A stretch of 64,000 bases of DNA from Actinomycetota bacterium. GTDB taxonomy: Bacteria > Actinomycetota > Acidimicrobiia > IMCC26256 > PALSA-610. Each line of letters begins with the position of its first letter. The first letter of the stretch is position 1. Shown piece after piece: positions 30,800 through 47,970 of this stretch. The stretch spans positions 62,001 to 126,000 of the forward strand of contig PLBO01000151.1 in the NCBI GenBank assembly GCA_003134555.1. Reading direction: 5' to 3'. Under the pieces are notes generated by a model. That model saw nothing but the letters and a program-made list of their open reading frames with translations. It was not told where the DNA came from and did no database searches. Both the position numbers and the translations under genes were made by a program.

Positions 30800-31722
30800 C
30801 CCACATGTCCGCGCCGCCGAGCCGAGTGCCGCGCGCCCCGGGCGAAGCGCATGTCGTGCGCCCGAGCATGTCGGCCCGCGAGCGGCTCGCGCGGATCATT
30901 CAACGCCGCGAGCTCCTCGTCGGGATGGTTCGCAACGAACTGAAGATCAAGTACAAGAACAGCGTCCTCGGTTTCGCGTGGTCGCTGCTGAACCCCTTGC
31001 TGTACCTCGTGGTGTTCTACGTCGCGTTCACGATCATCCTCGGTTCGGGCATCCCCGCCTTCCCGATCTGGCTTCTTTCGGGTCTGCTCGTGTGGAACCT
31101 GTTCTCGACCGGGCTGGGCGCGGCGACCGGGTCGGTCGTTGCCAACTCCGGTCTGGTGAAGAAGGTCTCGTTCCCGCGCGAGATCCTGCCGCTGGCGTCG
31201 GTCGGCAGCATGCTGGTGCACTTCTTCTTGCAGAGTCTCGTGTTGTTCGTGGTGCTCGCAGCCGTGCGTTGGCACGTGGCCTGGGCGTACATCCCGCTGA
31301 TTCCTCTGGCGCTCATCGCGCTGCTACTGGTGACCAGCGCACTGGGAATCCTGCTTTCCGCGATCAACGTGTACCTCCGGGACACCTCGCACTTTCTCGA
31401 GCTCGCGCTGCTGGCATGGTTCTGGGTCACTCCTGTCGTGTACTACTTCCAGCTCGTCGGTCATCGCCACGGTTGGTCGAAGTATTTGTGGTTGGCCAAC
31501 CCGGTCACGCCCATCGTCTTGATCTTCCAGCGCGCGATCTACGCGAAGTTGACGAATCCCCATCCGGCTGGTGGCGGCCCCCCGATCCAGCTGCTTCCGC
31601 ACTGGCCCTACTGGGGCTTCCTTGCCTATCTCGGGTGGTCGTTCGCGTTCGGGCTCGTCACCCTCACGATCGCGGTGCGGGTGTTCGGGCGTTCGGAGGC
31701 GAACTTCGCGGAGGAGCTCTGA
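30796..31722 (+). CDS. wzm: Polysaccharide ABC transporter permease (Wzm/TagG type)
   Basis: 308 aa. The GTG at 30796 lies 5 nt after GGAGGA and overlaps the previous stop (GTGA); ATG 30805 is an alternative. ABC-2-type permease with six membrane helices between about 55 and 295 and the conserved N-terminal signature VRNELKIKYKNSVLGFAWS and SLLNPLLYLVVFYVAF. With the ATPase encoded next it moves lipid-linked glycan across the cytoplasmic membrane. It starts the polysaccharide locus. Confidence 0.94.
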   Translation: MTHMSAPPSRVPRAPGEAHVVRPSMSARERLARIIQRRELLVGMVRNELKIKYKNSVLGFAWSLLNPLLYLVVFYVAFTIILGSGIPAFPIWLLSGLLVWNLFSTGLGAATGSVVANSGLVKKVSFPREILPLASVGSMLVHFFLQSLVLFVVLAAVRWHVAWAYIPLIPLALIALLLVTSALGILLSAINVYLRDTSHFLELALLAWFWVTPVVYYFQLVGHRHGWSKYLWLANPVTPIVLIFQRAIYAKLTNPHPAGGGPPIQLLPHWPYWGFLAYLGWSFAFGLVTLTIAVRVFGRSEANFAEEL

Positions 31723-31723
31723 G

Positions 31724-32983: not shown

Positions 32984-33963
32984 ATGTCCGCCGGATGCTC
33001 GTCGCGCCGGTCCGGAAGGCGTTGCACGAGGGCGCGGCCCGGTGGCCCTGCTTTCGGCGAGTCGTCGAGATCGGCGCGCGCGAGCTGGGACGGGCCCTGC
33101 ACGACGACCTGTACGCCGAGGGCTACTACGGCGAAGCGAGCGGCTCGGTAACCGCGGTCGACATCGGTACGGCCGAGTACACGCGCACCGCGACCCACGC
33201 CGACGAGGGTGCGTACCTCGTGTGGCGGTTCCTGCCCGTGCGGCGCACGCTCGATGTCGGTTGCGCGTTCGGTTTCTTCGTGGAGGCCGAGCGCGAGCTC
33301 GGCCTCGATGCGCTCGGTGTCGACGTGAGTCAGTACGCGCTCGACCACGCCGCGTTCGGGGCGCGGGGGCACGTGCGGTACGGCAACCTGCTGCACCGCC
33401 TGCCGTTCGGTCGAGGCGCGTTCGAAGGTGTGTCGCTCTTCGAGACCCTCGAGCACCTCCCGCCCGAGGTGGTGCCGCGCGCGTTGCGCGAAGTCCGCCG
33501 GATGACCACGAAGTACGTGATCGCGACGATCCCCTCTTTCGGACCCAATCCCAACGGTCCCGGTGGATGGTTCGACGTGAAGGTCCGACCCGAGCGCCTC
33601 GACCACTACCGGTCGCTCGGCGATGGCTACGACGGTCCGGTCGCGTACGACGACCTCTACCGCGACGAGGACGGCGCGCCGATCGAGGGTCACCTCACGA
33701 TTGCGTCGTTCGCGTGGTGGACCCGCCAGTTCGAGGCGGCCGGCTTCGTGCGCGACGGCGAGTTGGAGCGGCGCATCCATCCGGAGCTCGCCCGGTTGGG
33801 CCTCACCAAGTATTGGAACCTGTACGTGTTCCGGGTTTTCGGCGTCCCCGCAGAGAGCGCTGAACCGCGCTCCGCTTCGGAGATCGCCGACGTCGAGAAG
33901 CGATTCGGCTTCGACCGCCGGGTGGCCGATCCCGAAGACCTCGCCCGCGTGCAAGCGACGTGA
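32980..33963 (+). CDS. SAM-dependent methyltransferase in exporter operon
   Basis: 327 aa, GTG overlapping the wzt stop. Class I Rossmann methyltransferase: motif I LDVGCAFGFFVEAERELG, post-I LGVDVSQYAL, motif ETLEHLPPEVVPRALRE and a late FEAAGFVRDGELERR. No membrane segment. A methyltransferase next to a Wzt with a binding domain may cap the non-reducing end of the glycan, as WbdD-type enzymes do. It could equally methylate sugars. Substrate unknown. Confidence 0.85.
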   Translation: MNVRRMLVAPVRKALHEGAARWPCFRRVVEIGARELGRALHDDLYAEGYYGEASGSVTAVDIGTAEYTRTATHADEGAYLVWRFLPVRRTLDVGCAFGFFVEAERELGLDALGVDVSQYALDHAAFGARGHVRYGNLLHRLPFGRGAFEGVSLFETLEHLPPEVVPRALREVRRMTTKYVIATIPSFGPNPNGPGGWFDVKVRPERLDHYRSLGDGYDGPVAYDDLYRDEDGAPIEGHLTIASFAWWTRQFEAAGFVRDGELERRIHPELARLGLTKYWNLYVFRVFGVPAESAEPRSASEIADVEKRFGFDRRVADPEDLARVQAT

Positions 33964-34919
33964 ACCGGCTCGGTCGGCTGCTCCCGCGGCGCGCGCAGGA
34001 CGCGGTGCACGTCTGGCGAGTTCGCACCCGTGATCGGCTGTTGTTCGGCGGCGACTGGGACATTCGCGACGCGATGCCGGAGCGATTCGTCCGAGCCGCG
34101 TTCCAGATCATCTTGCGCCGCAACCCCGATCCCGGCGGTTTGCAGAATTACGTGACCGTTCTCGAAGAGCGGAAGATGACGACGGATGGTGTTCTCGACG
34201 AGCTCCTCACCTCCATGGAGCTGCGCGTCGGGGTTCCGTACGAGAACATCCTGCGCTCGCTGCACCAGTCGCGATGCGACTTCGTGCGCATGCTGCCGCG
34301 CGCGGCGCGGATCCTCGATCTCGGCGGAACCGACCAGGCCGAAGACGCGGGCGCGCTCGTTTCCATGGGATACCCGTACCGGTTCGAGCTCCTGACGATC
34401 GTCGACCTGCCGGGTGGCGAGCGCCACGAGCTGTACGGCTATCTGGCGTCGTCGGAGACCGTTGGATCGCGGTGCGGTCCGGTGCAATACCGGTATCACT
34501 CGATGGTCGACCTGTCGCCCTACCCCGACGCCTCCTTCGATCTCGTCTTCAGCGGCGAGACGATCGAGCACGTCACCGAGGACGAGGCCAAGAAGATGCT
34601 CGCCGAGATCCGGCGCGTGCTCGCACCCGGCGGCTGGTTCTGTCTCGACACGCCCAACCGGCTGGTCACCGCGTTGCAGCTCGGCGCCGACGTGCTCTCG
34701 AACCCCGATCACAAGCTCGAGTACACGCACGAACAACTGTCGACGCTGCTGCGCGACGCGGGCTTCGACATCGTCGGAGCGTATGGGCTGAGCCTCGCCG
34801 ACCAGTCACTGGCCCACGCCGAGTTCGACGTCGCCGAGGTCGCGGCCAAGCACGGCGTGTACGCGGAGGCGGCCGACTGCTACCTCCTCGCCTACATGTG
34901 TCGCACTCCCGCGCCCTGA
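33960..34919 (+). CDS. DUF4214-methyltransferase fusion
   Basis: 319 aa, GTG overlapping the upstream stop. Residues about 35-95 (FQIILRRNPDPGGLQNYVTV, then LLTSMELR) match DUF4214, a short helical module usually found in secreted or S-layer-associated proteins and glycosyltransferases. Residues about 110-315 form a class I methyltransferase: ARILDLGGTDQAED, SFDLVFSGETIEHVTEDEA, ARRVLAPGGWFCLDTPN (in parts) and LRDAGFDIV. The module may hold the enzyme on the glycan or its carrier. Last plus-strand gene of the exporter operon. Confidence 0.82.
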   Translation: MNRLGRLLPRRAQDAVHVWRVRTRDRLLFGGDWDIRDAMPERFVRAAFQIILRRNPDPGGLQNYVTVLEERKMTTDGVLDELLTSMELRVGVPYENILRSLHQSRCDFVRMLPRAARILDLGGTDQAEDAGALVSMGYPYRFELLTIVDLPGGERHELYGYLASSETVGSRCGPVQYRYHSMVDLSPYPDASFDLVFSGETIEHVTEDEAKKMLAEIRRVLAPGGWFCLDTPNRLVTALQLGADVLSNPDHKLEYTHEQLSTLLRDAGFDIVGAYGLSLADQSLAHAEFDVAEVAAKHGVYAEAADCYLLAYMCRTPAP

Positions 34920-34923
34920 GCCG

Positions 34924-35802
34924 TCAGCGGCGGGATCGCTGCACCACGAGCCCGAACGATGTGTGCGTGCAACCGAGCGTCTGGGTGCGGATGTGTGTGT
35001 TCGTGAAGGGCGGCGTGTCGACGTGAAGGTCTTCCGGCTGGGCGCCGGTCCGGAACGTGATCTTCATCCGATGACCCTGCCGGCGCATGGCGTGCACCAA
35101 TGCCTCGAGTTGCGGTCGTTGGTAGAGCACGGTCAGGCCATCTGACAACGTCGGGCCGAAAGGGTCGACGTTGTACTCCGTCGTGTGCACGCCGACACCG
35201 CCCGGTCTCATGCACGCGAGCTGGCGCTCGAAGAACTCGAGCCCGGCATCCAGCGAACCAAGGTGCTCCATCGCGCACGACGACCAGACGAAGTCGAACG
35301 ATCGAAGATCGTCGGGGATCTCACGCATGTCGACGGGACGAAAAGAAGCCCGCTCCCTGAACGCGGCGTCGTCGCAGAGTCCGGCGGAATTGAGATCGGC
35401 CAACTCATTGGCGTGCTCGCCGGATTCGCGCCACTCGTCGGCACGCTCGGCGCTCGCGGGTAGGTCGGTCGCCACGATGCTCACCGACTTGTCCGCGGCG
35501 TAGGCGGCGATGGGTTCGTTCCCGACCCCGAAGCCGAGGCCCCGCCGTCCTGGACGCAACATTGCGTGATCTTCCAGGACCTGCAGGATGTACACCCACT
35601 CCCACGTTTTCCGGTGGTGAAGTGGACGGATCCGGAGCCGGTCGCACCATTGCGTGTATTCACCCGAGCGGATCTGATCGAAGGTGCACGCCTGCGATAT
35701 CGCGTTACGAAGCTTCGCGGGGCGACGGTATGAAACACCTCGAGCGGATCGAAGAGCACTTGTCGCAGCTCGACGGGGCGAGGTGAGAAGCGACACGTGC
35801 AC
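34924..35802 (-). CDS. SAM-dependent methyltransferase-like protein
   Basis: 292 aa. Class I methyltransferase-like core: LRPGRRGLGFGVGNEPIAAY replaces the usual E/D-x-G-x-G loop and keeps GFGVG. Then SIVATDLPAS, FDFVWSSCAMEHLGSLDAGLEFF (in parts) and CMRPGGVGVHTTEYNV. The N-terminal 80 residues are basic. Head-to-head convergence with the DUF4214 fusion gene leaves 4 bp between stops. It ends the minus-strand arm of glycosyltransferases (35806-42002), so sugar methylation is the likely job. Substrate unknown. Confidence 0.78.
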   Translation of the reverse strand: MHVSLLTSPRRAATSALRSARGVSYRRPAKLRNAISQACTFDQIRSGEYTQWCDRLRIRPLHHRKTWEWVYILQVLEDHAMLRPGRRGLGFGVGNEPIAAYAADKSVSIVATDLPASAERADEWRESGEHANELADLNSAGLCDDAAFRERASFRPVDMREIPDDLRSFDFVWSSCAMEHLGSLDAGLEFFERQLACMRPGGVGVHTTEYNVDPFGPTLSDGLTVLYQRPQLEALVHAMRRQGHRMKITFRTGAQPEDLHVDTPPFTNTHIRTQTLGCTHTSFGLVVQRSRR

Positions 35803-35805
35803 AAC

Positions 35806-36984
35806 CTATCGGCGCGTGCCCACGCGTCGGACGAAGTCCGAGTATCGATCGATCACGTCGCTCCAGGTGTAGTGCCGGTCGACATAGGCCTTCCCGGCAC
35901 GACCGAGCGCGGCGCGCAGTGTGGCGGAGCCGGCCAGCCGATCGATCTCGACCTCGAGCTCGGCGTAGTTGCCGAACGCGAGACCTCCGCCGGAGCGCAG
36001 GGCGTGGTCGCGGGTCACTTCGCAGCGGCTGTTGACGAGCGCCGGAGTCCCGACCGACCACGCCTCCATCAGGACGATCGAGAAGGATTCGAACGCGCTC
36101 GCCGACACGAGCGCGTACGCGCCGCGCAACAAGCCCCACTTCACGGCTTCGTCGACCGCTCCCGCCGTCACGATGTCGGGATGCACCGGGGGCTCGTTGA
36201 TCACCGGCCCCGCGAAGACGAGCTGCAGCGGTCCGGGCCGGCGGCTCTTGTAGCGCGCGAAACACTCCGCGAGCAGCCGTGCGCCTTTCCCGTCGTCGAC
36301 CCGGCCGAGACAGATCAGGTAGGGACGATCGTCGAGTCCGATCGCATTCCGGGCCGCGGTGGTGCGTCCTTCGCCGACGTCGACGCCGAGCCCGACGACG
36401 ACCGCGGGTTTCGACGCGACCGCGAAGCGCCCCTCGACGAGGCGTCGTTCCGGATCGCTCCAGTACGCGAGGCCGGCCGCGGCGCCGAACACCGACCGGT
36501 AGAGCGGCAGCTTCAGTATGGGCTCGTCGTGCGCGGCGGGGTGAAGGACGGCGCGATCCGCGACGCGCGGCAGCCCCGCGACCGTCGGGTGGTACAGAAA
36601 GGGGTGGAACGCGATCGCGTCGGCGTCGCACTGCGCGATCGCGTCGATCAATCCGGGCGCGACCGGGCCTTGCTTGTTGATCCACTCACGCTGCTGCGCC
36701 TCGGTCACCCGGCGCCCGCGGCGAACGACGAGATCGGTGCTCGCGTCGAAATCGGCCGCCCGCCGGCCCTTGACCGGGAAACGATGTACCTGCACGCCGT
36801 CGAGCTCCGTCGTCCCACTCGGATACTGATCGTCCCAGGTGGTCGCGTCGAGCGCGCAGGTGGTGAGCGCGGAGACTGCGAAACCGGGGCGCGTCGCGAG
36901 CCGCGTCGCGAGGAGACGGGCCGCCGTCTCGGCACCGCCGGCGACCTCGCGGCCGTAGCGGGGCGTGACGACGGCGAGCTTCAT
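35806..36984 (-). CDS. GT4-family glycosyltransferase (AGGAE type)
   Basis: 392 aa from ATG 36984, where beta-strand 1 MKLAVVTPRYG begins; ATG 37005, overlapping the previous stop, would add seven residues. It has VAGGAETAARLLA, LHPAAHDEPILKLPLY, the nucleotide-binding YLICLGRVDDGKG and the E-x7-E motif E-S-F-S-I-V-L-M-E. Clearly paralogous to 46768-47970 on the opposite arm, which shares AGGAE, LHPxxHDEPxL, GRIDxGKG and ESFSxxLxEA. Cytoplasmic. Donor and acceptor unknown. Confidence 0.87.
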   Translation of the reverse strand: MKLAVVTPRYGREVAGGAETAARLLATRLATRPGFAVSALTTCALDATTWDDQYPSGTTELDGVQVHRFPVKGRRAADFDASTDLVVRRGRRVTEAQQREWINKQGPVAPGLIDAIAQCDADAIAFHPFLYHPTVAGLPRVADRAVLHPAAHDEPILKLPLYRSVFGAAAGLAYWSDPERRLVEGRFAVASKPAVVVGLGVDVGEGRTTAARNAIGLDDRPYLICLGRVDDGKGARLLAECFARYKSRRPGPLQLVFAGPVINEPPVHPDIVTAGAVDEAVKWGLLRGAYALVSASAFESFSIVLMEAWSVGTPALVNSRCEVTRDHALRSGGGLAFGNYAELEVEIDRLAGSATLRAALGRAGKAYVDRHYTWSDVIDRYSDFVRRVGTRR

Positions 36985-37001
36985 CGCCTGATCTTCGATG
37001 T

Positions 37002-38066
37002 TCATGCCGGGCGTGCCGCCGACGTCACGGCTTCGACGAACGCGGGCCCGGTGTGCGACACGTCGAAATCGTGCACGCGTCGCGCACCGGCATCGACCAG
37101 CTGGCGGCGCAGCGCGGCGTCGCCGACAACGCGATCCACGGCGGCCGCGATGGTGCACGGGTCCTTGACGTCGAAGAGCAAGCCCGCCTCGCCCAGCGTC
37201 TCGGGCACCGCGGCCGCCGAGAACGCGACGATCGGCACGCGGTGGTGCATCGCTTCGAGCAGTGGTACGCAGAAGCCCTCGTGTTCACTGCATACGACGA
37301 ACACGTCGGCGGCTCGGTAGTACGCGGCCAGCTCCGATGGCGAGACCCCGCCGGCGAGGGTCACCGCGTCGTCGAGGCCGAGGGCATGGATGAACCGCTG
37401 GAGGGTGTGCGCGTACCCGTCTTCGCGGCCGCCGCCGACGAGGTGCAGACGCGCGTCGGCGTTGTGGAAGCGACGGTACGCGGCGAACGCCTTGACGATG
37501 TCGTGTTGGGCTTTGTTCGGCGCGAGGCGGCCGACGAACAGCCAGTTGACGACGTCGGTGCGCGCCGGCGCCGGCGCCGGCGCGGGTCCGGGCTCGACGT
37601 CGAGCGAGGCGAGATCGACGAGCACGGGAACGACGGTGGTGCGGGGGAACCCGGCCTCGATCAGGTCGTGTTCGTTGTAGCTCGAGACCGCCACCCCGAG
37701 CCGCGCCTGCGCGGCCAGCTCGCGGAGTTGCCCGCGACCCCACGTCACTCCGTACGCGGCCACGGGTTGCCAGCCGGCGATGTAGCGCATTGGCGTGAGG
37801 TTGTGATGGTTGACCACTATCGGCTCTTCCCGTGCGAGGACGGCGTCGGCGACGACGGATCCGATCGCCATCTGGTACACGATGACGTCGGCACGACCGC
37901 GCGCGTCTCGCAGCAGGTGAACGCCGCGGTCGGCCCACGCGGGATCGATCTCGGACGCGTAGATCTCGGACGTGTGCCCCGCGGCGCGCAGCACGTCGCG
38001 CGCGACCAGCGTGTGTGCGCCGACCGCCCCGGGCTCGAGGGTCGGGGCGAACTGATGGACGATCAT
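37002..38066 (-). CDS. GT4-family glycosyltransferase (VHQFAPTL type), tandem copy A
   Basis: 354 aa. Begins MIVHQFAPTLEPGAVGAHTL, then VVNHHNLTPMRYIAGW, the donor-site WLFVGRLAPNKAQHDIVKAF and E-x7-E motif in EHEGFCVPLLEAMHHRVPIV. Tandem paralogue of the next gene (38063-39157): a stretch of more than 20 residues around GRLAPNKAQHDIVKAFAAYR and the HHRVPIVA/SAAAVPETLG block are almost the same. An Ala-Pro-rich run (PAPAPAPA) sits in the interdomain linker. Its start overlaps the upstream stop. Confidence 0.87.
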   Translation of the reverse strand: MIVHQFAPTLEPGAVGAHTLVARDVLRAAGHTSEIYASEIDPAWADRGVHLLRDARGRADVIVYQMAIGSVVADAVLAREEPIVVNHHNLTPMRYIAGWQPVAAYGVTWGRGQLRELAAQARLGVAVSSYNEHDLIEAGFPRTTVVPVLVDLASLDVEPGPAPAPAPARTDVVNWLFVGRLAPNKAQHDIVKAFAAYRRFHNADARLHLVGGGREDGYAHTLQRFIHALGLDDAVTLAGGVSPSELAAYYRAADVFVVCSEHEGFCVPLLEAMHHRVPIVAFSAAAVPETLGEAGLLFDVKDPCTIAAAVDRVVGDAALRRQLVDAGARRVHDFDVSHTGPAFVEAVTSAARPA

Positions 38067-39157
38067 GACGCGGGCCCGACCACGCCGTCGATCGCGTCGA
38101 GGAGCTTGCGTCGCGACTTGGCGATGTCGAACTCGCGCAGCCGTTCGACCCCGGCGCCCACGAGTTGCAACCGCAGGTCGGGATCGGTGACGACGCGATG
38201 CACGGCCGTCGCGATCGTGTATGCGTCCTTCGCGTCGAGGAGGAGACCGGCGTCGCCCAGCGTCTCGGGTACGGCGGCGGCCGAGTAGGCGACGATCGGG
38301 ACGCGATGGTGCATGGCCTCGAGGAGGGGGACGCAGAAGCCCTCGTGGTCGCTCGCGATGACGTATACGTCGGCTGTCTCGTAGTGCGCGGTCAGCGCGC
38401 CTGCGCTGACGGGTCCGGTGATCTCGACCGCGTCACCCAGACCGAGGGCGTCGACGAAGTCGCAGAGCGCGGTCTCGTATCGATGCGACGACGAGCCGCC
38501 GACCAGATGTAGGCGCGCCCGTTCGTCGTACAGGCGGCGGTACGCCGCGAATGCTTTCACGATGTCGTGTTGCGCCTTGTTCGGTGCGAGCCGGCCGACG
38601 AAGAGCCAGTCGGCTCCGCCGCGGGCCCGCGCGTCCGCCAGTCGGCCGAGCGTCGCGGGGTCGGGTGGCGCCGCGAACGCTTTCACGACGTCGATCAGGA
38701 TAGGGACGACCGAGGTTCGTTCGAATCCGATGTCGGTCAATTCCTGCGCGTTGAACGCGGAATCGGCGATCCCCAGCTGGGCGCGGGTTTCGAGCGCGGC
38801 GAGCTGCCGTCGTCCCTTCATGAGCGCGCCGGCGACCGCGGGCTCCCACCGAGAGAAGAACGGCGCGGGCGTGATGTTGTGATAGTCGACGATGAGCGGT
38901 TCGTCGCGAGCGGCGACGAAGTCGGCCACGGGCGAGCCGACCGAGGAGTGGTAGAGCAGCCACGTCGGCTCACCGCGCCCGTCGCCCGTGAACGACGTGA
39001 ACGAGCGGGCGAGACGCTTGTACTCGTCCTTGGCTTCGTACGAGTAGATGTCGGAGCGGTAGCCGGCTCCGCGCAGCGTCTCCTGCACCGCGAGGTAGTG
39101 CCCGCCGACGGCGTCTCGCGGTGCGAGCGTGGGGACGAATTGGTGAACCGCGGTCAT
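38063..39157 (-). CDS. GT4-family glycosyltransferase (VHQFVPTL type), tandem copy B
   Basis: 364 aa, ATG at 39157 overlapping the upstream methyltransferase stop. MTAVHQFVPTLAPRDAVGGH, LIVDYHNITPAPFFSRWEPA, GIADSAFNAQELTDIGFERT, then GRLAPNKAQHDIVKAF and E-x7-E in DHEGFCVPLLEAMHHR. Near-duplicate of copy A in the C-terminal domain but more divergent in the N-terminal, acceptor-binding half, which suggests same donor and different acceptors. A more distant relative (45668-46768) occupies the same place in the plus-strand arm. Confidence 0.87.
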   Translation of the reverse strand: MTAVHQFVPTLAPRDAVGGHYLAVQETLRGAGYRSDIYSYEAKDEYKRLARSFTSFTGDGRGEPTWLLYHSSVGSPVADFVAARDEPLIVDYHNITPAPFFSRWEPAVAGALMKGRRQLAALETRAQLGIADSAFNAQELTDIGFERTSVVPILIDVVKAFAAPPDPATLGRLADARARGGADWLFVGRLAPNKAQHDIVKAFAAYRRLYDERARLHLVGGSSSHRYETALCDFVDALGLGDAVEITGPVSAGALTAHYETADVYVIASDHEGFCVPLLEAMHHRVPIVAYSAAAVPETLGDAGLLLDAKDAYTIATAVHRVVTDPDLRLQLVGAGVERLREFDIAKSRRKLLDAIDGVVGPAS

Positions 39158-40107
39158 TCGTCGGCGCGGGTCGCGGTGACGACGTAGGCGTCGGCGCCCG
39201 CGGCATGGACCTGTATGTCGACGAAACCCTGCTCGGGGAGCACCGCGTTCCAGGTGTCGGGATGCAGTGGACGGCCGGCGACGAGATCGGCTTCGGCCGC
39301 GGTGGCGTCGCGTCCCCATGACTCACGCCGGAGGCTGCAGACGACCAACCGTCCTCCGGGCACGAGCTTGGCTGCGGCCGCGTCGACGAGCAGCAACAGC
39401 TCGCCCAGCGGTGCGCGCTCCACGAGCCCGCGCAGCACCAGACCGCCCAATGCGGCCGCGCCGACGGCGTGGAGGTGCGCAGCGCCGTCATCGATGCGGA
39501 CCTCGAGCCCGCGCGCGAGCGCGGCATCGGCAACCGACGCACGCGGCTCGACGCCGTACGCATCGAGGCCGGTGCTCACCAGCGCGTCGAGCAATACACC
39601 GTCGCCGCATTCGACGACGGCGATTCGACCGGCGCAACCTTGCAACGCGTTCGTCACCGATGTCTGCCACGCGCCGTCGTCGCGACGCGCGGGGATCCGG
39701 GCTCCGACACCGCGTGCCCGAGCGATGTCGCCGGTGACGTGCTCCAGGTCGACGACGCGCCCGCCGAGGAGTCGGAGCGCGGTGTTGATCGCAGTCGCCA
39801 GCGCGCTGATCTGTTGCGCGAGCCAGACGTGATACCACCCGAGCAGCTTCGACATGACCCGCTTGACGGCGCCCAGGACCGGGCTGCGGGACGCGACGGG
39901 GATCACCGGGTCGACGATGACGAGATCCTCGGAGCGCTCGAGCGCGGCTTCGAAGTCGTTACTCACCTCGGGCGGCGCGAACCGATCGAACATCCGGTCT
40001 AGCTCGCGCTCGAAGCCCGGCGGGTACTCGCCCGCGGCCCGTCGCGCCCGCACCTCCGCTTCGATCTCGGCGGCGAGCTTGTGGATGTCGACGTGGTCGT
40101 CCGTCAA
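39154..40107 (-). CDS. Methyltransferase-like protein with N-terminal EYPPG helical motif
   Basis: 317 aa. The TTG at 40107 is chosen because a GGAGG site lies 8 nt upstream and no ATG or GTG precedes the conserved region. The N-terminus has RRAAGEYPPGFERELDRMF, shared with 44457-45671 (RRVDGEYPPGLEAELDGHF). A helical region about 75-135 follows, then a degenerate methyltransferase core: IAVVECGDGVLLDAL, YGVEPRASV, LVPGGRLVVCSLR. It lacks the usual GxGxG loop, so activity is uncertain. It precedes the GT4 pair in the minus arm. Confidence 0.72.
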   Translation of the reverse strand: MTDDHVDIHKLAAEIEAEVRARRAAGEYPPGFERELDRMFDRFAPPEVSNDFEAALERSEDLVIVDPVIPVASRSPVLGAVKRVMSKLLGWYHVWLAQQISALATAINTALRLLGGRVVDLEHVTGDIARARGVGARIPARRDDGAWQTSVTNALQGCAGRIAVVECGDGVLLDALVSTGLDAYGVEPRASVADAALARGLEVRIDDGAAHLHAVGAAALGGLVLRGLVERAPLGELLLLVDAAAAKLVPGGRLVVCSLRRESWGRDATAAEADLVAGRPLHPDTWNAVLPEQGFVDIQVHAAGADAYVVTATRADE

Positions 40108-40163
40108 GACCGAATCCTCCGAATGCGGGACAGTATCGCCGTCTCCGAGTTTCGCCGGTGTTG

Positions 40164-42002
40164 CTACTGCGCCAGCTCGACCAGGATGCCACCGGGTAGG
40201 CGGTCGACGCGTGCGGCGACTCCGCGCGGGATCTGCCGCACGAGAAGCTCGGCCGTCGCCGGCGCGTAGCGGCCCGCGCCGTCGCGGGCGATCTGAGGGA
40301 GCAATCCGGCGGGGGTCAGCACGCCGACCAGCGCTGTCCGCATCACGACGTAGCGCACGCGCAGCCGGCGCAGCGCGGTGAGGGCGTCCGGATTCGGGAA
40401 CTGATCGAGCGCAGCCGCGAGCGCGTCGAAGCCCTTCGGCTGGAAGCCGGAGTATCCGTTGATCCGGGGGTCGTGGTCGCGCAGGGCCAGCAACTGGCGG
40501 GGTGACTCCACGTACGGCCACATGACTCCACGCGCCGCCGACGCGAGGGGGAGCTCGACCGCGATACCCGGCGGCCGGGCCCGTAACGCGAGGTCGATGC
40601 CGCCATCGGCCGCAGATGTCGGCACGCGTACGAACACGACGGGGAGCGCCGACTCCGCGATCACGATCGCTATCAAACTGAGGACGAGCCCCATCCGGAC
40701 GCGCCGGCTCAGCCGTCGGAGCGCGAACTCGATGCCGACCGCCGCCAACAATGCCAGCGCGAGCTCGAAACCGAGCGCGAGTCGAGCCACCGCTCGGATC
40801 CCGGCAAAGCCCGGCACGAAATGACGGAACACGACGAACGGCAGGAATATGCGGTGACCGCCGATACGAGTCCAGTCGCCGAACGCCAGCACGAGGCACG
40901 CGAGACCGGCCAGTGTCACGAACAACAACTCCCGGGCCCGACCTGTCCGCCAGGCGCGTCGCCGGATCTCGCGCACCGCGGCGATGGCTCCTACGACACC
41001 AAAGGCGAGTCCGACGAATCCCGGGAAGAGTCGATTCTCGATGAGCCTGCTGCTCGGAAGCGACCGCGACGCGATGAACGGGACATGCGAGAGCACACGA
41101 CTGCTGCTCCCGGTCGCAAGGAAGTCCTGGACGTGCGCAGCGCTGTCGCGAGCGAAGCTTCGTCGGAATTCCGGATGACGCTCGAGGCGCAGGTACCGCA
41201 CGCCGAACGGGGCGATGAGCGCCAAAGCGACGATCGCGGCCACAGCGAGCGCGCCGACGACGGGGCGCACGGCCTGTGGTCGCTGCGCGAGCACCCACCC
41301 CGTGGCGACGATCGCGACGATCACGCCCATCATCGCGCCGTAATAGCTCGCAGTCAGTGTGAGTGCGGCCAGGCTGAGGCTGAGCACTACTGCCCGACTC
41401 GCGCTGGGCGAGTCGAGGCAACGCAGCAGCAGCAGTAGCACGAGCGGGACGAGCGCTCCCCCGACGACCAGCTGGAAATGACCGTGGTGCACGAGCCGCA
41501 TCGCCGAGTACGTGTAGACGAGCGCGGCGACGAACGCTGCGCCCCAATGCGTGACGACGCGGCGGGCGAGGCGGTACATGCACCACGACGACCCGACCCA
41601 CGACCCGAGATAGATCAGGTTGAACGCGAGGACGTCGCCGAAGAGGGTACGCAGCGGCCAGTGCACGAGCGCCACCGGGAAGAGGGTGTCGCTGTACGCG
41701 AGCGTGTCGTGCGCCGGGACGAAGATCGGCGCGTTCCACAGAACGTGCCATCCGTGGGGCAGGCCGATCTCGACGCGCCGAAGGACCCACATTTCGAGGA
41801 GTGAGTCGCCGGAGTCGCCGGCGATGAATGTGCGCATCCGCGAGATCTGCGGGTAGGTGAGGACGATGGCGATGAGGGTGAACGCCGCCAGCAGCAAGAT
41901 CGTGGCGGGCTCGCGGGCAGGAGAGATGACGGTCGAAGCGTCCGAGGGATCCTCGGGCGAGGACGACTCGCCGCCGGACTCGGCCGCCGTCTCGCTGTGC
42001 AC
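40164..42002 (-). CDS. GT-C-like polytopic membrane protein
   Basis: 612 aa, GTG at 42002. After a 30-residue acidic N-terminus come about 10-12 membrane helices (35-485) and a C-terminal soluble part (about 490-612). Loop 1 has acidic residues after helix 1 (AGDSGDSLLEMWVLRR), the place of the catalytic Asp/Glu in lipid-linked-sugar GT-C enzymes. The C-terminal domain contains INGYSGFQPKGFDALAAAL and RRLRVRYVVMRTAL, typical of actinobacterial GT-C or YfhO-like proteins. It probably adds sugars outside the membrane. Divergent from the FG-GAP gene. Confidence 0.7.
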   Translation of the reverse strand: MHSETAAESGGESSSPEDPSDASTVISPAREPATILLLAAFTLIAIVLTYPQISRMRTFIAGDSGDSLLEMWVLRRVEIGLPHGWHVLWNAPIFVPAHDTLAYSDTLFPVALVHWPLRTLFGDVLAFNLIYLGSWVGSSWCMYRLARRVVTHWGAAFVAALVYTYSAMRLVHHGHFQLVVGGALVPLVLLLLLRCLDSPSASRAVVLSLSLAALTLTASYYGAMMGVIVAIVATGWVLAQRPQAVRPVVGALAVAAIVALALIAPFGVRYLRLERHPEFRRSFARDSAAHVQDFLATGSSSRVLSHVPFIASRSLPSSRLIENRLFPGFVGLAFGVVGAIAAVREIRRRAWRTGRARELLFVTLAGLACLVLAFGDWTRIGGHRIFLPFVVFRHFVPGFAGIRAVARLALGFELALALLAAVGIEFALRRLSRRVRMGLVLSLIAIVIAESALPVVFVRVPTSAADGGIDLALRARPPGIAVELPLASAARGVMWPYVESPRQLLALRDHDPRINGYSGFQPKGFDALAAALDQFPNPDALTALRRLRVRYVVMRTALVGVLTPAGLLPQIARDGAGRYAPATAELLVRQIPRGVAARVDRLPGGILVELAQ

Positions 42003-42136
42003 GGGACGACGCTATTCGCCCGACCGCGGCGGGCCCGGTTTCTTGGGCGACTTCTGGAATGGTTCGTCGGGACGTCAAGTGCTTGCGTGATGGCGCCGAT
42101 ACTCGCTCTGGGCATGAACAGAGAGGCTCCCGTTCG

Positions 42137-44413
42137 GTGCGTGTTCGACTCTTGCCGTTGGCGACGTCGGTCGCGCTCGCAGTAGGCGCTCTCGTCGTCG
42201 CGCCGTCCCCGCCCGCGAGCGGGTCGACCGTCTCGGCGAAGCCCTCCTGGACCGATGGCTCGAGCGGCTGGGACCGCACCTCGTCGCCCACCATCGCCGA
42301 CGTCAATGGTGACGGCCGACGCGAGATCGTCATCGGGCACCAGAACGGTCTCCTTCACGTCATCAACGCCGCCAACGGTCGAGACCTCGCAGGATGGCCG
42401 CAGCAGACGGGCTCCGCGATCGACAGTACGCCGGCCGTTGGTGATCTCTTCAGCAACGGTAGGCAGGAGATCGTCGTCGGCCTCGGCTCCACCTGGGTGC
42501 GCAATCAGCAGGGTGGCGTCGCGGTGTTCAACTCGAACGGCTCCTTGCACTGCGTGTTCCGGACGCTCGACTACGGGAACATCTGGGCCAACACGCCTGG
42601 CCCGGATGGCTACGCCGACGCAGTGTTCTCGTCACCGGCCATCGGCGACATCAACGGCGACGGCTTTCCCGACATCGTGTTCGGCGGCTTCGACCTGCAC
42701 GTGCACGCGATCGACCGCAACTGCCACGAGATCATGAGCGACAATACCGAAGACAGCGTCTGGTCGTCGCCGGCGCTGTACGACGTCAACGGTGACGGTC
42801 GACTCGACATCCTCATCGGCGGCGATCAGTCCGCGGGTGGCGCGATCAACTGGTCGGGTGGCGAGTTCCGTGCGATCGAGTACACGCCCGGCGACTCGGT
42901 CGGATGTTCGCATTGCCACGAGATCTGGAAGCACCAGGTCAACGACACCGTCTGGTCGAGCCCTGCCATCGGCGACATCGACGGCGACGGGCGTCCCGAG
43001 GTGATCGTCGGCGGCGGAAACTTCTATAACCGCTCCGACGGGCACAAGGTCTTCGCCTGGCACGTCGACGACGGCTCGAGCCTGCCCGGTTGGCCGGTTG
43101 CGACGGGCGGCTCGACCATGCCATCGCCCGCGCTCGGCGATCTCACCGGTGACGGGATCCCCGAGGTCGTCGTTTCCAGCGCCGACGGTTGGGTGCGCGC
43201 CTACAACCCCAACGGATCACTCCACTGGGCGACGCACCTTTGGGCGTTCAGTCCGCAACAGGGGGGTGGCCCCGTAGCGTCGCCGATCATCGCCGACATG
43301 AACGGTGACGGTCGCAACGACGTCGGTGCGGGCAACAACTTCGCCTACTTCGTCCTGAACGGTGTGAACGGTGTGATCATGTCGGTCGTCGACGCCTACC
43401 AGTCGCACGAGAGTGCAGCCGCGGTGGGCGACTTCGGTGCCGGAGTCGGTTGGCGCCTGGTCGTCGCCGGGTTCGACACACCGAACCTTCGGAGTCGGCT
43501 GCAGTCGTTCCCGATGCCGGCGCCACGCACCGCGCCGCCGTGGCCCATGTTCCGGCGCGAGGCTTTCCACCACGCGGGGCCCGTTGCGCTGCGCCTGCTG
43601 CCGCCGGGACAGTGCCGGGCCAGCCTGTATCCCGCGGGGCATCCGCTCGCCGCTTCCTCGAAGGGCTACTGGGTCGCGGGCGCGGACGGGGGCGTCTACG
43701 CGCTGAAGGGCGCGCCGTTCTACGGGAGCGCGGCGGGCCGCATTCGCGGCACCGCGGTCGCGATGGCCGCGACACATTCCGGCCTCGGCTACTACCTCCT
43801 CGACAACAGCGGCAGCATCCTTCCGTTCGGTGATGCTCGGTCCCTCGGCTCGATGGCGGGTTTGCGTCTCAACGCGCCGATCATCGCGCTCGCGCCGACC
43901 CCGTCCGGGCGGGGCTATTGGCTGCTCGGTTCGGACGGCGGCGTGTTCAGCTTCGGCGACGCGCGCTTCTACGGCTCCATGGGCGGGACGCACCTCAACG
44001 CGCCGGTGATCTCGATGGCCGCGACGCGCACAGGCCGCGGCTACTGGTTGCTCGCGTCGGACGGCGGCGTGTTCAGCTTCGGTGACGCGCGGTTCCACGG
44101 CTCGACCGGCAGCATGCGACTGAACTCTCCTGTCATCTCGATGGCGACGGCACCATCCGGCCGCGGTTACTGGCTGGTCGCGGGCGACGGTGGCATCTTC
44201 AGCTTCGGCGTTCCGTTCTACGGCAGTCTTCCGGGGCTCGGACTCTGCCAGTTGGCGGCGGGAGTGCAGATCCGGCCGACGCTCACGGGGAACGGCTACT
44301 TCGTGCTCGCACGCAACGGCCGGGTCTTCGCGTTCGGTGACGCGTTGGCGGGTCCTTCGGCTCCGAACCTGGGTGGTTGGAGTTTCGCGGTCGACCTCGC
44401 CGTGCGGCCCTGA
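42137..44413 (+). CDS. Secreted FG-GAP protein with C-terminal six-unit GYW propeller
   Basis: 758 aa. The GTG at 42137 gives a clean signal peptide (VRVRLLPLATSVALAVGALV, cleavage near SGS), with GAGAGG about 10 nt upstream. Residues about 50-400 hold seven FG-GAP/VCBS calcium-loop units of the form D-x-N-G-D-G-x-x-D/E-I-V: DVNGDGRREIVIG, DLFSNGRQEIVVG, DINGDGFPDIVFG, DVNGDGRLDILIG, DIDGDGRPEVIVG, DLTGDGIPEVVVS and DMNGDGRNDVGAG. These suggest a seven-bladed propeller. Residues 510-758 hold six GYW units of about 42 aa. Probably a surface carbohydrate- or protein-binding adhesin. Divergent from the GT-C-like gene. Confidence 0.85.
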   Translation: MRVRLLPLATSVALAVGALVVAPSPPASGSTVSAKPSWTDGSSGWDRTSSPTIADVNGDGRREIVIGHQNGLLHVINAANGRDLAGWPQQTGSAIDSTPAVGDLFSNGRQEIVVGLGSTWVRNQQGGVAVFNSNGSLHCVFRTLDYGNIWANTPGPDGYADAVFSSPAIGDINGDGFPDIVFGGFDLHVHAIDRNCHEIMSDNTEDSVWSSPALYDVNGDGRLDILIGGDQSAGGAINWSGGEFRAIEYTPGDSVGCSHCHEIWKHQVNDTVWSSPAIGDIDGDGRPEVIVGGGNFYNRSDGHKVFAWHVDDGSSLPGWPVATGGSTMPSPALGDLTGDGIPEVVVSSADGWVRAYNPNGSLHWATHLWAFSPQQGGGPVASPIIADMNGDGRNDVGAGNNFAYFVLNGVNGVIMSVVDAYQSHESAAAVGDFGAGVGWRLVVAGFDTPNLRSRLQSFPMPAPRTAPPWPMFRREAFHHAGPVALRLLPPGQCRASLYPAGHPLAASSKGYWVAGADGGVYALKGAPFYGSAAGRIRGTAVAMAATHSGLGYYLLDNSGSILPFGDARSLGSMAGLRLNAPIIALAPTPSGRGYWLLGSDGGVFSFGDARFYGSMGGTHLNAPVISMAATRTGRGYWLLASDGGVFSFGDARFHGSTGSMRLNSPVISMATAPSGRGYWLVAGDGGIFSFGVPFYGSLPGLGLCQLAAGVQIRPTLTGNGYFVLARNGRVFAFGDALAGPSAPNLGGWSFAVDLAVRP
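43664..44410 (+). repeat. Six tandem GYW-DGG-FSFGDA protein repeats (about 42 aa each)
   Basis: Units begin at GYWVAGADGG, GYYLLDNSGS, GYWLLGSDGG, GYWLLASDGG, GYWLVAGDGG and GYFVLARNGR. The consensus is G-Y-W-L-x-x-x-D-G-G-x-F-S-F-G-D-A-x-F-x-G-S. The period is exactly 42 residues between the best units. The same six-unit block ends the amidase at 59919-61460. Confidence 0.85.
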
Positions 44414-44456
44414 GCTGGTCCGCTCCGGAGGGACGTCCCAAGGTACATTCGGCGGT

Positions 44457-45671
44457 GTGGCCGACGCGCAGCCCCCGTCCTCGCCCGAGCAGAGTCCGCC
44501 CGATCTCCGGCGCCTCCTCGCGGCTCTACGCGCTCGAGTAGAAAAGCGGCGCGTCGACGGCGAGTACCCGCCCGGCCTCGAAGCCGAGCTCGACGGGCAC
44601 TTCGAGCGTTTGACGGGCGATCGCCCGCCCACCCCTTCGTTCCTGCTCGCCGAGCTCGAACACGCGCTCGACGACCTCGATCACTTCGAGTATCGCCGTG
44701 ACGCCATCAGCTACGACAGCCGCATACCCGGAGGCTCGGCAATGCACCGGGCAATCGCGAAAGGCGTCGGCCGTCAGATCCAGAGCGTGCTGGAGCAGAC
44801 GCAGGACCAGTCGCACCGGGTCGTCCGCACGATCGCGCTGATGGCGCGCGCGACGAACATGCTTGCCGACGCCTACGACACCCGCGTCATCCAACAGCTC
44901 GACGACCTACAGCTCCATCTCGCGCAGGAGCAGGATCGATTGCAGCAGGTTCTCGCTCGTCTCACCGAGGTCGCGGCGCGCGTCCCGGGCGTGGCCGTCG
45001 ACAGGTGGTACGAGGAAGATGCGTTCAACGCGCACTTCCGGGGGGATCCCGGCGACATCGCCGACCGCTACCGCGACCTCGCCGCGCGCTTCGTGGGCTG
45101 CGATCCGGTCCTCGACATCGGCTTCGGACGCGGGGAGTTCCTCGAGTTGTTGCGCGAGCTCGACGTGGACGCCCGCGGTATAGAAACCGAGCCGCGCCTC
45201 GTCGAGTGGGCACGGTCCAGGGGCTTGCGGGCCGATGTCGGTCGAGCAGTCGAGTACCTGAGCCAGCTCGACGGTGCGAGCCTCGGCGGCCTGGTGATGA
45301 TCCAGGTCATCGAGCACCTCTCGCCGCAGCACGTCATCGACGTCGTGCGGCTGTCCGCGGAGAAGGTACGGCCGGGCGGCCGTGTCGTCATCGAGACCGT
45401 GAACCCCATGTCGCTGTACACGTTCGCCCACGCGTTCTGGGTCGATCCCGATCACGTTCGGCCGGTACACCCGAACTACCTCGGCTTCTTGTTCGCGGAG
45501 GCCGGATTCGCGAACGTCGAGCGAGTCGACCGCTCACCTGTCCCCGCCGACGAGAGTCTCGAGTTGATGCCCGGCGACGACGAGCTCTCCAAGCGTCTCA
45601 ACGCGAACTTCGATCGCATCAACGCGTTGTTGTTCGGCCCGCAGGACTACGCCATCGTCGCAACGCGGTGA
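44457..45671 (+). CDS. Coiled-coil SAM-dependent methyltransferase with N-terminal EYPPG motif
   Basis: 404 aa, GTG at 44457. Residues about 35-60 contain RRVDGEYPPGLEAELDGHF, the motif shared with 39154-40107. Residues about 100-180 are helical and include LHLAQEQDRLQQVLARLTEV, a probable coiled coil. The methyltransferase core (about 195-404) has a full motif I, VLDIGFGRGEFLELL, then ARGIETEPRLVEWA, VIQVIEHLSPQHVIDVV (as MIQVIEHL) and VRPGGRVVIETVNPMS. The stop overlaps the next GTG. Likely modifies the glycan made by the two GT4 enzymes encoded downstream. Confidence 0.85.
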   Translation: MADAQPPSSPEQSPPDLRRLLAALRARVEKRRVDGEYPPGLEAELDGHFERLTGDRPPTPSFLLAELEHALDDLDHFEYRRDAISYDSRIPGGSAMHRAIAKGVGRQIQSVLEQTQDQSHRVVRTIALMARATNMLADAYDTRVIQQLDDLQLHLAQEQDRLQQVLARLTEVAARVPGVAVDRWYEEDAFNAHFRGDPGDIADRYRDLAARFVGCDPVLDIGFGRGEFLELLRELDVDARGIETEPRLVEWARSRGLRADVGRAVEYLSQLDGASLGGLVMIQVIEHLSPQHVIDVVRLSAEKVRPGGRVVIETVNPMSLYTFAHAFWVDPDHVRPVHPNYLGFLFAEAGFANVERVDRSPVPADESLELMPGDDELSKRLNANFDRINALLFGPQDYAIVATR

Positions 45672-46768
45672 GCACCCCGGCGCTGAGCGAGCCGGCCGGC
45701 GTCGGCATCCATCAGGTGCTGGTCGCGGCGTCGCCGGGCGACGCGATCACGAATATGGCACTCGGTGTTCGGCGCCTCCTGCGCCGCGTCGGCCCCTCGG
45801 AGATCTACGCCCGGCACATCGCGCCCGCGCTCCACGAGGATGTACTTCCGCTCGAGACCTACGGGTCGCATCAGCCCTCCGGAAGTGTGCTGATCTTCCA
45901 CGCGTCGATCGGCCAAGCCGAAGTGCACGAGTTCTTGACGTCTCGGCCGGAACCGCTCGTCCTCGTGTATCACAACGTCACGCCGGGTTGGTACTTCGAA
46001 CGATACGACCCCGTGTTCGCGGATCTGCTCGCGCTCGGACGTCGAGAAGTCGAGCGTCTGCGTCCGCGGGTCGTGGGCGCGATCGCCGATTCGCAGTACA
46101 ACGCGCGCGAGCTCGAGGAGATGGGCTACTCGGATGTGCGCGTCGTTCCGCCGATCGTCGATCTTCGGCATCTTTCGACGGTCGAACCGCGCGCGTCGAC
46201 CATGCATCACCTCGCGTCGCTCGATGGCCCGATCCTGCTCTCGGTCGGCCAGCTGATGCCGCACAAGCGTCCCGACTTCCTCGTGGAGATGATGCACATC
46301 GCCGCGACCTACCAAGAGATGGACGGGTATTTGATGCTCGTCGGACATCAGCGACTCGAGCGTTACGCGCGCGCCATACGGGAGCAGGTCCAAGAGCTCA
46401 ACCTTTCCGATGTTCACGTCGTCGGCGCGGTCGACGAGGCCGACCTGGCCGCGATGTTCCGTTCGGCCGACGCGATCGTGACCGCGAGCGAGCACGAAGG
46501 CTTCTGCCTGCCTCTTCTCGAGGCGATGACGTTCGAGACCCCGATCGTCGCCCGCGCCTGCGCCGCGATACCGGAGACCGTCGGCGCCGCCGCGCTCCTG
46601 CTCCCGCCCGATGAGGGTCCGGTGCTCTTCGCCGAGGCGGTCACGGAGTTGCTTTCCAACGAACCCCTGCAGCGAGAGCTGGTTGCCGGTGGAAGGCGCC
46701 GGCTGGCCGAGCTCGAACGCTGCCCGCCGGATGCCGCGCTCGTCGAAGCACTGCTCGAGGTCGTCTGA
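45668..46768 (+). CDS. GT4-family glycosyltransferase (IHQ type)
   Basis: 366 aa, GTG overlapping the upstream stop. GIHQVLVAASPGDAITNMAL, LVLVYHNVTPGWYFERYDP, ADSQYNARELEEMGYSDVRV, ILLSVGQLMPHKRPDFLVEM and the E-x7-E motif within SEHEGFCLPLLEAM. It is the counterpart of the VHQ-type genes 37002-39157: the HQ start, YHNxTP, SxxNxxEL and EHEGFCxPLLEAM segments align. The Lys of the donor site is kept (PHKRPD). Its stop overlaps the next start. Confidence 0.87.
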   Translation: MSTPALSEPAGVGIHQVLVAASPGDAITNMALGVRRLLRRVGPSEIYARHIAPALHEDVLPLETYGSHQPSGSVLIFHASIGQAEVHEFLTSRPEPLVLVYHNVTPGWYFERYDPVFADLLALGRREVERLRPRVVGAIADSQYNARELEEMGYSDVRVVPPIVDLRHLSTVEPRASTMHHLASLDGPILLSVGQLMPHKRPDFLVEMMHIAATYQEMDGYLMLVGHQRLERYARAIREQVQELNLSDVHVVGAVDEADLAAMFRSADAIVTASEHEGFCLPLLEAMTFETPIVARACAAIPETVGAAALLLPPDEGPVLFAEAVTELLSNEPLQRELVAGGRRRLAELERCPPDAALVEALLEVV

Positions 46769-47970
46769 TGCGTCTCCTCTATGTCGTGCAGCGCTATGGC
46801 GACACGATCGCGGGCGGCGCCGAGCAACACTGCCGGGAGATGGCCGAGCGGATGGCCCGGCGCGGCCATCACGTCGAGGTCGCCACCACCTGCGCGAAGT
46901 CGTACGTCGACTGGGCCAACGCGTACGAGCCGGGTGAGTCATTCGTCGGTGGCGTGCTCATACATCGGTTCCGCGTCGCGGCGCCGCGCGAGAGCACACG
47001 GTTCAACGAGCTGAATCGGCGCCTGGTGCGCGGGCGCGGTTCGCGCCCGCTGTTCCTCCAAAAGGAATGGATGCGAGAGCAGGGTCCGTGGTCGCCCGAC
47101 CTGGTCACCTGGCTCGAGCGCGACGCCAAGCGATTCGATTGCGTGATCTGCTTCACGTACCTCTACTGGACGACCTGGGCGGCGCTCGACGCCCTGCGCG
47201 GCCTCGTTCCTTTGGTCCTGCATCCGACCGTGCACGACGAACCGCCATTGCGGCTCTCGTTGTTCGACGAGGTGTTCCACGCACCGGACGCATTCGCACT
47301 TTCGGCACCCGAGGAGCTCGACCTCATTCGCTCGCGGTTCGGCTTCGACCCGCCGTGCGAGGTGGTCGGCATCGGAGTCGAGGTGGGTACGGCGGAACCG
47401 GAACGATTCCGCGCGGCCTACGGACTCGGAGCCAAGCCGTATCTGCTCTACGTCGGCCGCATCGACGAAGGCAAGGGTGCGCTCGCGCTCGTCGACTTCT
47501 TCGTTGCCTACAAAGAACGTCATCCGACCGACGACCTCGCGCTCGTGCTGGTCGGTGACGACCTGATCCAGATTCCCGAACGCGACGACATCGTCGTCAC
47601 CGGGTTCGTCGACTACCAGACTCGCGACGACGCCCTGGCCGGCGCGCTCGCGCTCGCGCAACCGTCGTTCTTCGAGAGCTTCTCGATGATCTTGACCGAA
47701 GCCTTCGCGTTCGCGCGACCCGCGCTCGTGCAAGGCAAGTGCGAGGTGCTCAACGGACACGCGCAGCGCAGCAATGCGGCGATTCCGTACGACAGCTACG
47801 CGGAGTTCGAAAGCGCGGTAGAGATGTTCCGCGACGACCCGGCGCTCGCCGACGCGATGGGCGCCGCCGGACGCGCGTATGTCGAGCGGGAGTACACCTG
47901 GGATGCGGTGCTCGACCGTTACGAGGCCTTGCTCGAACGCACGGCGAGGCTCGTGAAAGACGACGTCTAG
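46768..47970 (+). CDS. GT4-family glycosyltransferase (AGGAE type)
   Basis: 400 aa. MRLLYVVQRYGDTIAGGAEQ, PLVLHPTVHDEPPLRLSLFD, YLLYVGRIDEGKGALALVDF and E-x7-E in ESFSMILTEAF. Paralogue of 35806-36984 on the minus arm. Ends the plus arm methyltransferase-GT4-GT4. Cytoplasmic, no membrane segment. It converges on the nucleotide-sugar dehydrogenase gene with 30 bp between stops. Confidence 0.87.
   Translation: MRLLYVVQRYGDTIAGGAEQHCREMAERMARRGHHVEVATTCAKSYVDWANAYEPGESFVGGVLIHRFRVAAPRESTRFNELNRRLVRGRGSRPLFLQKEWMREQGPWSPDLVTWLERDAKRFDCVICFTYLYWTTWAALDALRGLVPLVLHPTVHDEPPLRLSLFDEVFHAPDAFALSAPEELDLIRSRFGFDPPCEVVGIGVEVGTAEPERFRAAYGLGAKPYLLYVGRIDEGKGALALVDFFVAYKERHPTDDLALVLVGDDLIQIPERDDIVVTGFVDYQTRDDALAGALALAQPSFFESFSMILTEAFAFARPALVQGKCEVLNGHAQRSNAAIPYDSYAEFESAVEMFRDDPALADAMGAAGRAYVEREYTWDAVLDRYEALLERTARLVKDDV

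What the first reader, a model, noticed from the sequence alone, without database searches (positions are those of the whole stretch)
35806..47970. Two divergent paralogous arms: EYPPG-methyltransferase, HQ-type GT4, AGGAE-type GT4
Seen: minus arm 40107-35806 and plus arm 44457-47970 contain the same gene order with related proteins: the methyltransferases share R-x-x-G-E-Y-P-P-G-x-E-x-E-L-D, then HQ-type GT4 (duplicated in tandem on the minus arm), then AGGAE-type GT4. Between them lie a GT-C-like gene and the FG-GAP propeller gene, divergently transcribed. Inference: an old inverted module duplication that diversified to build two branches or repeat units.
Basis: partly seen in the sequence, partly recalled or inferred. 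Interest (0 to 1): 0.68.

Follow-up and report, generated by a model that had tools for sequence, protein, structure and literature searches.

The report
Paired glycan-assembly modules sharing an adaptor
Two look-alike sets of sugar-polymer-building genes stand head to head beside one polymer exporter in an actinobacterium; they are not a fresh inverted copy but two ancient module types, both starting with a previously unnamed 'EYPPG' adaptor domain that often persists after its methyltransferase half has been lost.

Summary
The minus arm (MT-HQ-HQ-AGG, 40107-35806) and plus arm (MT-HQ-AGG, 44457-47970) are homologous gene by gene (28%, 35%, 40% identity). Trees and AU tests reject duplication within this genus (p 3e-9, 4e-23, 5e-36). 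Each arm has its own orthologues across the class, often as a lone module and often beside Wzm/Wzt. Where both modules occur, their orientation varies (tandem, divergent or distant), so the inversion is not a scar of duplication. The GT-C gene between the arms is absent from the nearest relatives and is probably a late insertion.

The defining part of the 'EYPPG methyltransferase' is its N-terminal ~115 aa (RRxxGxYPPxxExELDxxF plus a helix), which Pfam and NCBIfam lack. It occurs with a canonical MT, with a divergent MT (minus arm), or alone (21 of 99 non-redundant copies). It almost always directly precedes an HQ or AGG GT4 gene. Several genomes with two or three such modules hold a single Wzt with a glycan-binding C-domain, including this one.

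Best reading: two ancient paralogous glycan assembly/termination modules of the ABC-transporter-dependent pathway, probably feeding one exporter. The EYPPG protein would be the membrane scaffold (WbdD/WsaE-like in logic, not homologous). The mechanism is inferred.

The parts
39154..40107 (-). minus-arm EYPPG protein (mMT): N-terminal EYPPG/helix domain (aa ~1-125) plus divergent class I methyltransferase-like domain (motif I E-C-G-x-G, third Gly and EHL motif missing)
38063..39157 (-). HQ-type GT4 (mHQ1)
37002..38066 (-). HQ-type GT4 (mHQ2), tandem paralogue of mHQ1 (51%); both copies have orthologues in other genera, so the tandem duplication is also old
35806..36984 (-). AGGAE-type GT4 (mAGG)
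44457..45671 (+). plus-arm EYPPG protein (pMT): EYPPG/helix domain, ~110-aa helical linker, canonical class I methyltransferase (DIGFGRG, EHL, DPDHVRPVHP)
45668..46768 (+). HQ-type GT4 (pHQ)
46768..47970 (+). AGGAE-type GT4 (pAGG)
42059..44413 (+). FG-GAP propeller protein with C-terminal GYW..DGGVFSFG repeats; lies between the arms in G107, G103 and BP_122 too
40164..42002 (-). GT-C-like membrane protein; no Pfam hit; absent at this site in G107, G103 and BP_122, so probably a late insertion
30805..31722 (+). Wzm-type ABC-2 permease of the polysaccharide exporter
31724..32983 (+). Wzt ATPase with C-terminal glycan-binding domain (Wzt_C, E 5.9e-25); the only Wzt_C match in the assembly
32980..34919 (+). 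two methyltransferase genes (MTa, MTb) overlapping the wzm-wzt operon
34924..35802 (-). methyltransferase-like gene (MTc) 3 nt downstream of mAGG, end of the minus operon

Best explanation
The arms are two anciently diverged copies (m-type and p-type) of one kind of cytoplasmic glycan-assembly module of the ABC-transporter-dependent (Wzm/Wzt) surface-polysaccharide pathway. Each module is an EYPPG protein translationally coupled to one or two HQ-type GT4s and an AGGAE-type GT4. Shown: gene order, homology, deep m/p split, frequent neighbourhood with wzm-wzt, CBM domain on Wzt, dispensability of the MT domain, and one Wzt_C exporter in several multi-module genomes. Inferred: the EYPPG/helix domain sits at the membrane and recruits the GT4 polymerases; the C-terminal MT, where intact, methylates the finished non-reducing end; Wzt_C checks that end before export. 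The two modules make successive blocks, or main and side chain, of one exported glycan. They lie head to head here because ancient modules were rearranged next to each other, not because one was copied here.
For: Trees: m and p clades each hold many other genera, and for HQ and AGG also families outside the class; AU rejection of within-genus duplication for HQ, AGG and MT. Synteny: Wzm-Wzt-EY-HQ/AGG single-module loci in the class (G009, G004, G111, G127) and phylum (G153, G181, G211, G367). The EY domain is found alone before pHQ-pAGG or mHQ in 21 of 99 non-redundant copies, with canonical motif I in 16, with an MT-like tail lacking it in 62; the next gene is HQ/AGG in 97 of 99. In the phylum scan seeded by EY alone, every full-length EY gene is followed by HQ/AGG. 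Wzt_C on the exporter, one per assembly in G000, G103, G079, G138, G281, G320 despite 2-3 EY modules. Model logic from published systems: coiled-coil protein carrying the terminator, amphipathic membrane helix and polymerase recruitment (WbdD, PMC11231755); MT-GT-GT WsaE next to wzm-wzt (PMC2943079).
Against: No biochemical data and no sugar structure. The helix is only weakly amphipathic by hydrophobic moment (p 0.003-0.23), and heptad periodicity shows in just part of the pMT linker; AF2 linker confidence is low in pMT. G107, G139, G119 and G232 show two Wzt_C matches (some fragments or weak), and distant Wzm homologues without a CBM exist in G000, so a second exporter cannot be excluded. 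In G138 the exporter lies on a contig without the modules. Neighbour counts are biased, because those loci were fetched by AGG similarity.
Confidence: 0.6

Rival explanations
1. Local inverted duplication in this lineage: one arm was copied and inverted here, then diversified.
For: Same gene order, divergent orientation, significant homology of all three gene types.
Against: AU tests reject it for all three genes. Each arm has separate orthologues in the same and other families. In G079 and G119 the same two modules are in tandem, in G138 and G139 far apart.
Confidence: 0.03
2. Two independent glycans: each module makes its own polymer with its own exporter and merely lies close by.
For: Modules occur singly (m alone in G127, G020, G015, G056, G009; p alone in G111), and either type can sit beside wzm-wzt. 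Distant Wzm homologues exist elsewhere in G000.
Against: Only one Wzt_C exporter in G000, G103, G079 (99% complete), G138, G281 and G320, all with two or three EY modules.
Confidence: 0.25
3. The EYPPG proteins are ordinary decorating methyltransferases that methylate internal sugars; the N-terminal domain is only a membrane anchor without a role in termination or GT recruitment.
For: The locus holds several other methyltransferases (MTa, MTb, MTc); the pMT domain is a typical class I fold (3dli, TM 0.89).
Against: The EY part persists without an MT domain in 21 of 99 copies and still precedes the GT4s; the minus-arm MT lacks canonical motif I in all 22 aligned members.
Confidence: 0.25
4. Convergent assembly: m and p modules were put together independently from common GT4 and MT families, so the shared order is not module duplication.
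For: Module make-up varies (one, two or three HQs; AGG before or after HQ; MT present or absent); AGG has a third mixed clade outside m and p.
Against: MT/EY and HQ, and largely AGG, show the same m/p bipartition, and the EY domain itself is shared.
Confidence: 0.15

Closest known systems
WbdD/WbdA of E. coli O9a / Klebsiella O3 (ABC-dependent O antigen)
   Same: Methyltransferase on a helical protein paired with a polymerase of glycosyltransferase modules, next to Wzm and a Wzt with C-terminal glycan-binding domain (PMC11231755).
   Different: No significant sequence match to a solved WbdD; no kinase domain found; domain order reversed (EY/helix N-terminal, MT C-terminal); GTs on separate polypeptides; MT often lost; two module types per genome.
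WsaE of Geobacillus stearothermophilus (S-layer glycan)
   Same: One MT and GT domains acting together beside wzm-wzt; MT methylates the terminal rhamnose (PMC2943079).
   Different: WsaE is one trifunctional polypeptide; here EY-MT, HQ and AGG are separate genes. No sequence comparison with WsaE was made.
3dli, SAM-dependent methyltransferase of Archaeoglobus fulgidus
   Same: Same fold and detectable sequence relation to the pMT C-terminal domain (31% identity in the structural alignment, TM 0.89; E 9e-36).
   Different: Covers only the MT domain (query 190-403); lacks the EYPPG domain and linker.

Membership tests
ABC-transporter-dependent (Wzm/Wzt) polysaccharide locus | ABC-2 permease and Wzt ATPase in the locus | tested here: met
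ABC-transporter-dependent (Wzm/Wzt) polysaccharide locus | Wzt C-terminal glycan-binding domain (terminated-chain type) | tested here: met
   PF14524, E 5.9e-25
ABC-transporter-dependent (Wzm/Wzt) polysaccharide locus | chain is terminated and only terminated chains are exported | not testable with these tools
   needs glycan chemistry and deletion strains
WbdD family of chain terminators | sequence homology to WbdD over MT and kinase domains | tested here: not met
   no WbdD among the PDB sequence matches shown; no kinase domain found
WbdD family of chain terminators | coiled-coil separating terminator from membrane/polymerase-binding end | tested here: inconclusive
   AF2 gives long helices (50 aa in mMT; 43 and 34 aa in pMT, the latter at low confidence); weak heptad signal
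Class I SAM methyltransferase (plus arm) | Rossmann-like MT fold with motif I D-x-G-x-G-x-G | tested here: met
   DIGFGRG, fold match TM 0.89
Class I SAM methyltransferase (minus arm) | canonical motif I and EHL motif | tested here: not met
   E-C-G-x-G only; canonical in 0 of 22 family members, although the MT fold is predicted
GT4 glycosyltransferases (HQ, AGG) | GT4/Glycos_transf_1 domain with E-x7-E motif | tested here: met
   Pfam hits above cut-off; EHEGFCVPLLE, FESFSMILTE in the translations
Recent inverted module duplication | matched genes of the two arms are closest relatives | tested here: not met

The most novel reading that the evidence does not exclude
The EYPPG/helix domain is an undescribed scaffold of ABC-exported glycan assembly in Actinomycetota: it recruits HQ and AGG GT4s at the membrane, is the constant part of the module, and carries an optional, replaceable terminator methyltransferase. 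Two such modules work in turn to build a two-block glycan that leaves through one CBM-gated exporter.
Probability: 0.35. Interest if true: 0.7.

Novelty: new variant of a known kind. Interest (0 to 1): 0.5.

Why it matters
ABC-transporter-dependent glycan assembly is understood mainly from Gram-negative O antigens, where a coiled-coil terminator protein sets chain length. These data point to a widespread actinobacterial counterpart built on a different, unnamed domain, with the methyltransferase detachable from the scaffold and two ancient modules sharing one exporter in several genomes. That makes it testable whether scaffold and terminator are separable functions, and gives a marker domain for finding such loci in genomes where cell-surface glycans are unknown.

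Tried and rejected
Recent local duplication: rejected. Minus-arm MT as a plain dead enzyme: not claimed, since E-C-G-x-G, the acidic end of strand 2 and RP-x-HP are kept. Homology to WbdD: no hit. A fission theory in which EY-only modules are completed by a convergent pMT-like gene downstream: those MTs carry their own different coiled N-termini and are poor matches (30-38%), so no fission is claimed; G142 has an unrelated MT gene inserted instead. Alignment A1 was too diverse for the search for related loci. 'of' with a locus id not accepted, so spread outside the phylum was not surveyed. Literature: no paper found for Acidimicrobiia plus Wzt, for Actinobacteria plus Wzt CBM, or for 'EYPPG'. 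PDB hits of the EY profile are a designed helical protein and a fusion scaffold, judged chance helix matches.

Full report
WHAT IS THERE. The window lies in a high-GC actinobacterial assembly of 154 contigs, 98% complete, whose nearest named relatives are Acidimicrobiia-type metagenome genomes. Between 30.8 and 48 kb there are four gene blocks: a plus-strand wzm-wzt-MTa-MTb block (30805-34919); a minus-strand block running from the GT-C-like gene (42002) through mMT, mHQ1, mHQ2 and mAGG to MTc (34924); a plus-strand FG-GAP propeller gene (42059-44413); and the plus arm pMT-pHQ-pAGG (44457-47970). Junctions inside the arms are 1-4-nt overlaps or gaps under 20 nt. Between-arm BLASTP gives 28% (MT), 34-36% (HQ) and 40% (AGG), E 4e-22 to 2e-77; the tandem HQs share 51%.

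ORIGIN. Class-wide searches show that the two methyltransferase genes have separate sets of relatives: pMT hits G107 (82%), G103, G139, G111 and others, mMT hits G107 (86%), G103 (57%), G139, G142, G138, G119, G079, G123, G127, G020 and others. Trees of HQ, AGG and MT place the plus-arm and minus-arm genes in different clades, each with many genera. In wider trees the HQ split (97 support) holds families outside the class on both sides; AGG has an m clade, a p clade and a third mixed clade of other families. Forcing the genus's own m and p copies into one clade is rejected for HQ (AU p 2.6e-9), AGG (4e-23) and MT (5e-36). The tandem HQ pair is old too: mHQ1 and mHQ2 each have orthologues in G139.

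SYNTENY. The minus-type module stands alone beside wzm-wzt in G009, G004 and G127, and alone in G020, G015 and G056; the plus-type module stands alone beside wzm-wzt in G111. Both occur in tandem on one strand in G079 and G119 and far apart on one strand in G138 and G139. The head-to-head form with the FG-GAP gene between is seen in this genome, BP_122 (L157) and G103, and fits the two contig ends of G107. L179 (a record labelled Chloroflexi) has the modules directly head to head without the FG-GAP gene. Single-module loci of the form wzm-wzt-EY-AGG-HQ occur in other families of the phylum (G153, G181, G162, G211, G367, G280). The GT-C gene of the window is missing at the same site in G107, G103 and BP_122, so it is probably a late insertion.

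THE EYPPG DOMAIN. The shared motif marks an N-terminal domain of about 115 aa: a short helix, the RRxxGxYPPxxExELDxxF stretch, then PxxSxxPGxxxxK and a long helix with a near-invariant Gln (AF2 model, helix 76-125). Pfam and NCBIfam have no model for it, and no paper held here prints EYPPG. In G138 (178 aa) and G142 the plus-type module starts with this domain alone; G281, G232 and G320 have it alone before minus-type HQ genes. Among 99 non-redundant full-length copies 16 carry an MT with canonical motif I, 62 an MT-like tail without it, 21 no MT; in 97 the next recognised gene is HQ or AGG. Part of that set was fetched through AGG, but in the phylum scan seeded with the EY domain only (28 of 396 genomes) every full-length case is also followed by HQ or AGG. 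The helix segment alone also appears at the C-terminus of other proteins and in small proteins, several near wzm-wzt, so it may be a general docking helix.

THE METHYLTRANSFERASES. pMT has DIGFGRG, EHL and DPDHVRPVHP and matches 3dli (TM 0.89). mMT keeps the fold, E-C-G-x-G and RPLHP but lacks the third glycine and EHL in all 22 aligned members. The plus-type copies of G119 and G079 have degenerate motif I. Activity of these divergent forms is unknown.

MECHANISM. Wzt carries Wzt_C, which in studied systems binds the finished chain end (PMC11231755). In such systems a coiled-coil protein holds the terminator, a membrane helix and the polymerase recruitment site (same paper), and in WsaE an MT and two GTs act together beside wzm-wzt (PMC2943079). 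By analogy I infer that the EYPPG protein is scaffold plus optional terminator for the GT4s. G000, G103, G079, G138, G281 and G320 hold two or three EY modules but one Wzt_C, which favours one exported glycan assembled by two modules. Against this stand second Wzt_C matches in G107, G139, G119 and G232, distant Wzm homologues, weak amphipathicity and heptad statistics, and the lack of any chemistry.

VERDICT. Real, ancient, not a local inverted duplication; a new variant of the known ABC-transporter-dependent glycan assembly scheme with an unnamed core domain. The genomic statements are well supported; the scaffold/terminator and two-block steps are inference.

Noticed in passing
G000:C58 (L069:232-3637): A 4375-base contig of the same assembly carries a third plus-type module (pMT 53%, HQ and AGG 52-57%, the latter two split between frames, 14 Ns). 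Its MT groups with G139 rather than with the window, so it may be a paralogue or a contaminant contig.
   Followed up: partly
52600-53000 +: Broken remnant of a second GT-C gene (about 33-41% to the 50.3-52.4 kb gene, split in two pieces); BP_122 has a longer second copy at the same place (L157:14017-14904).
   Followed up: partly
42059-44413 and 59919-61460: The FG-GAP protein and an amidase-like secreted protein share C-terminal GYW..DGGVFSFGDA.F.GS repeats; such genes recur beside the glycan modules in many relatives.
   Followed up: no
L099:16752-18086, L098, L100, L077: The PxSxxPGxxxLKRxxRxLTxW..P...Q helix of the EYPPG domain recurs at the C-terminus of otherwise unrelated proteins, and as small coiled proteins (L150, L151), several near wzm-wzt: a possible general docking helix.
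   Followed up: partly
L083:10938-11993, L085:5204-6355: In G119 and G079 the plus-arm methyltransferase has lost canonical motif I although the module is otherwise complete.
   Followed up: no
L179: A contig filed as Chloroflexi has both modules directly head to head without the FG-GAP gene; transfer or mis-binning is possible.
   Followed up: no
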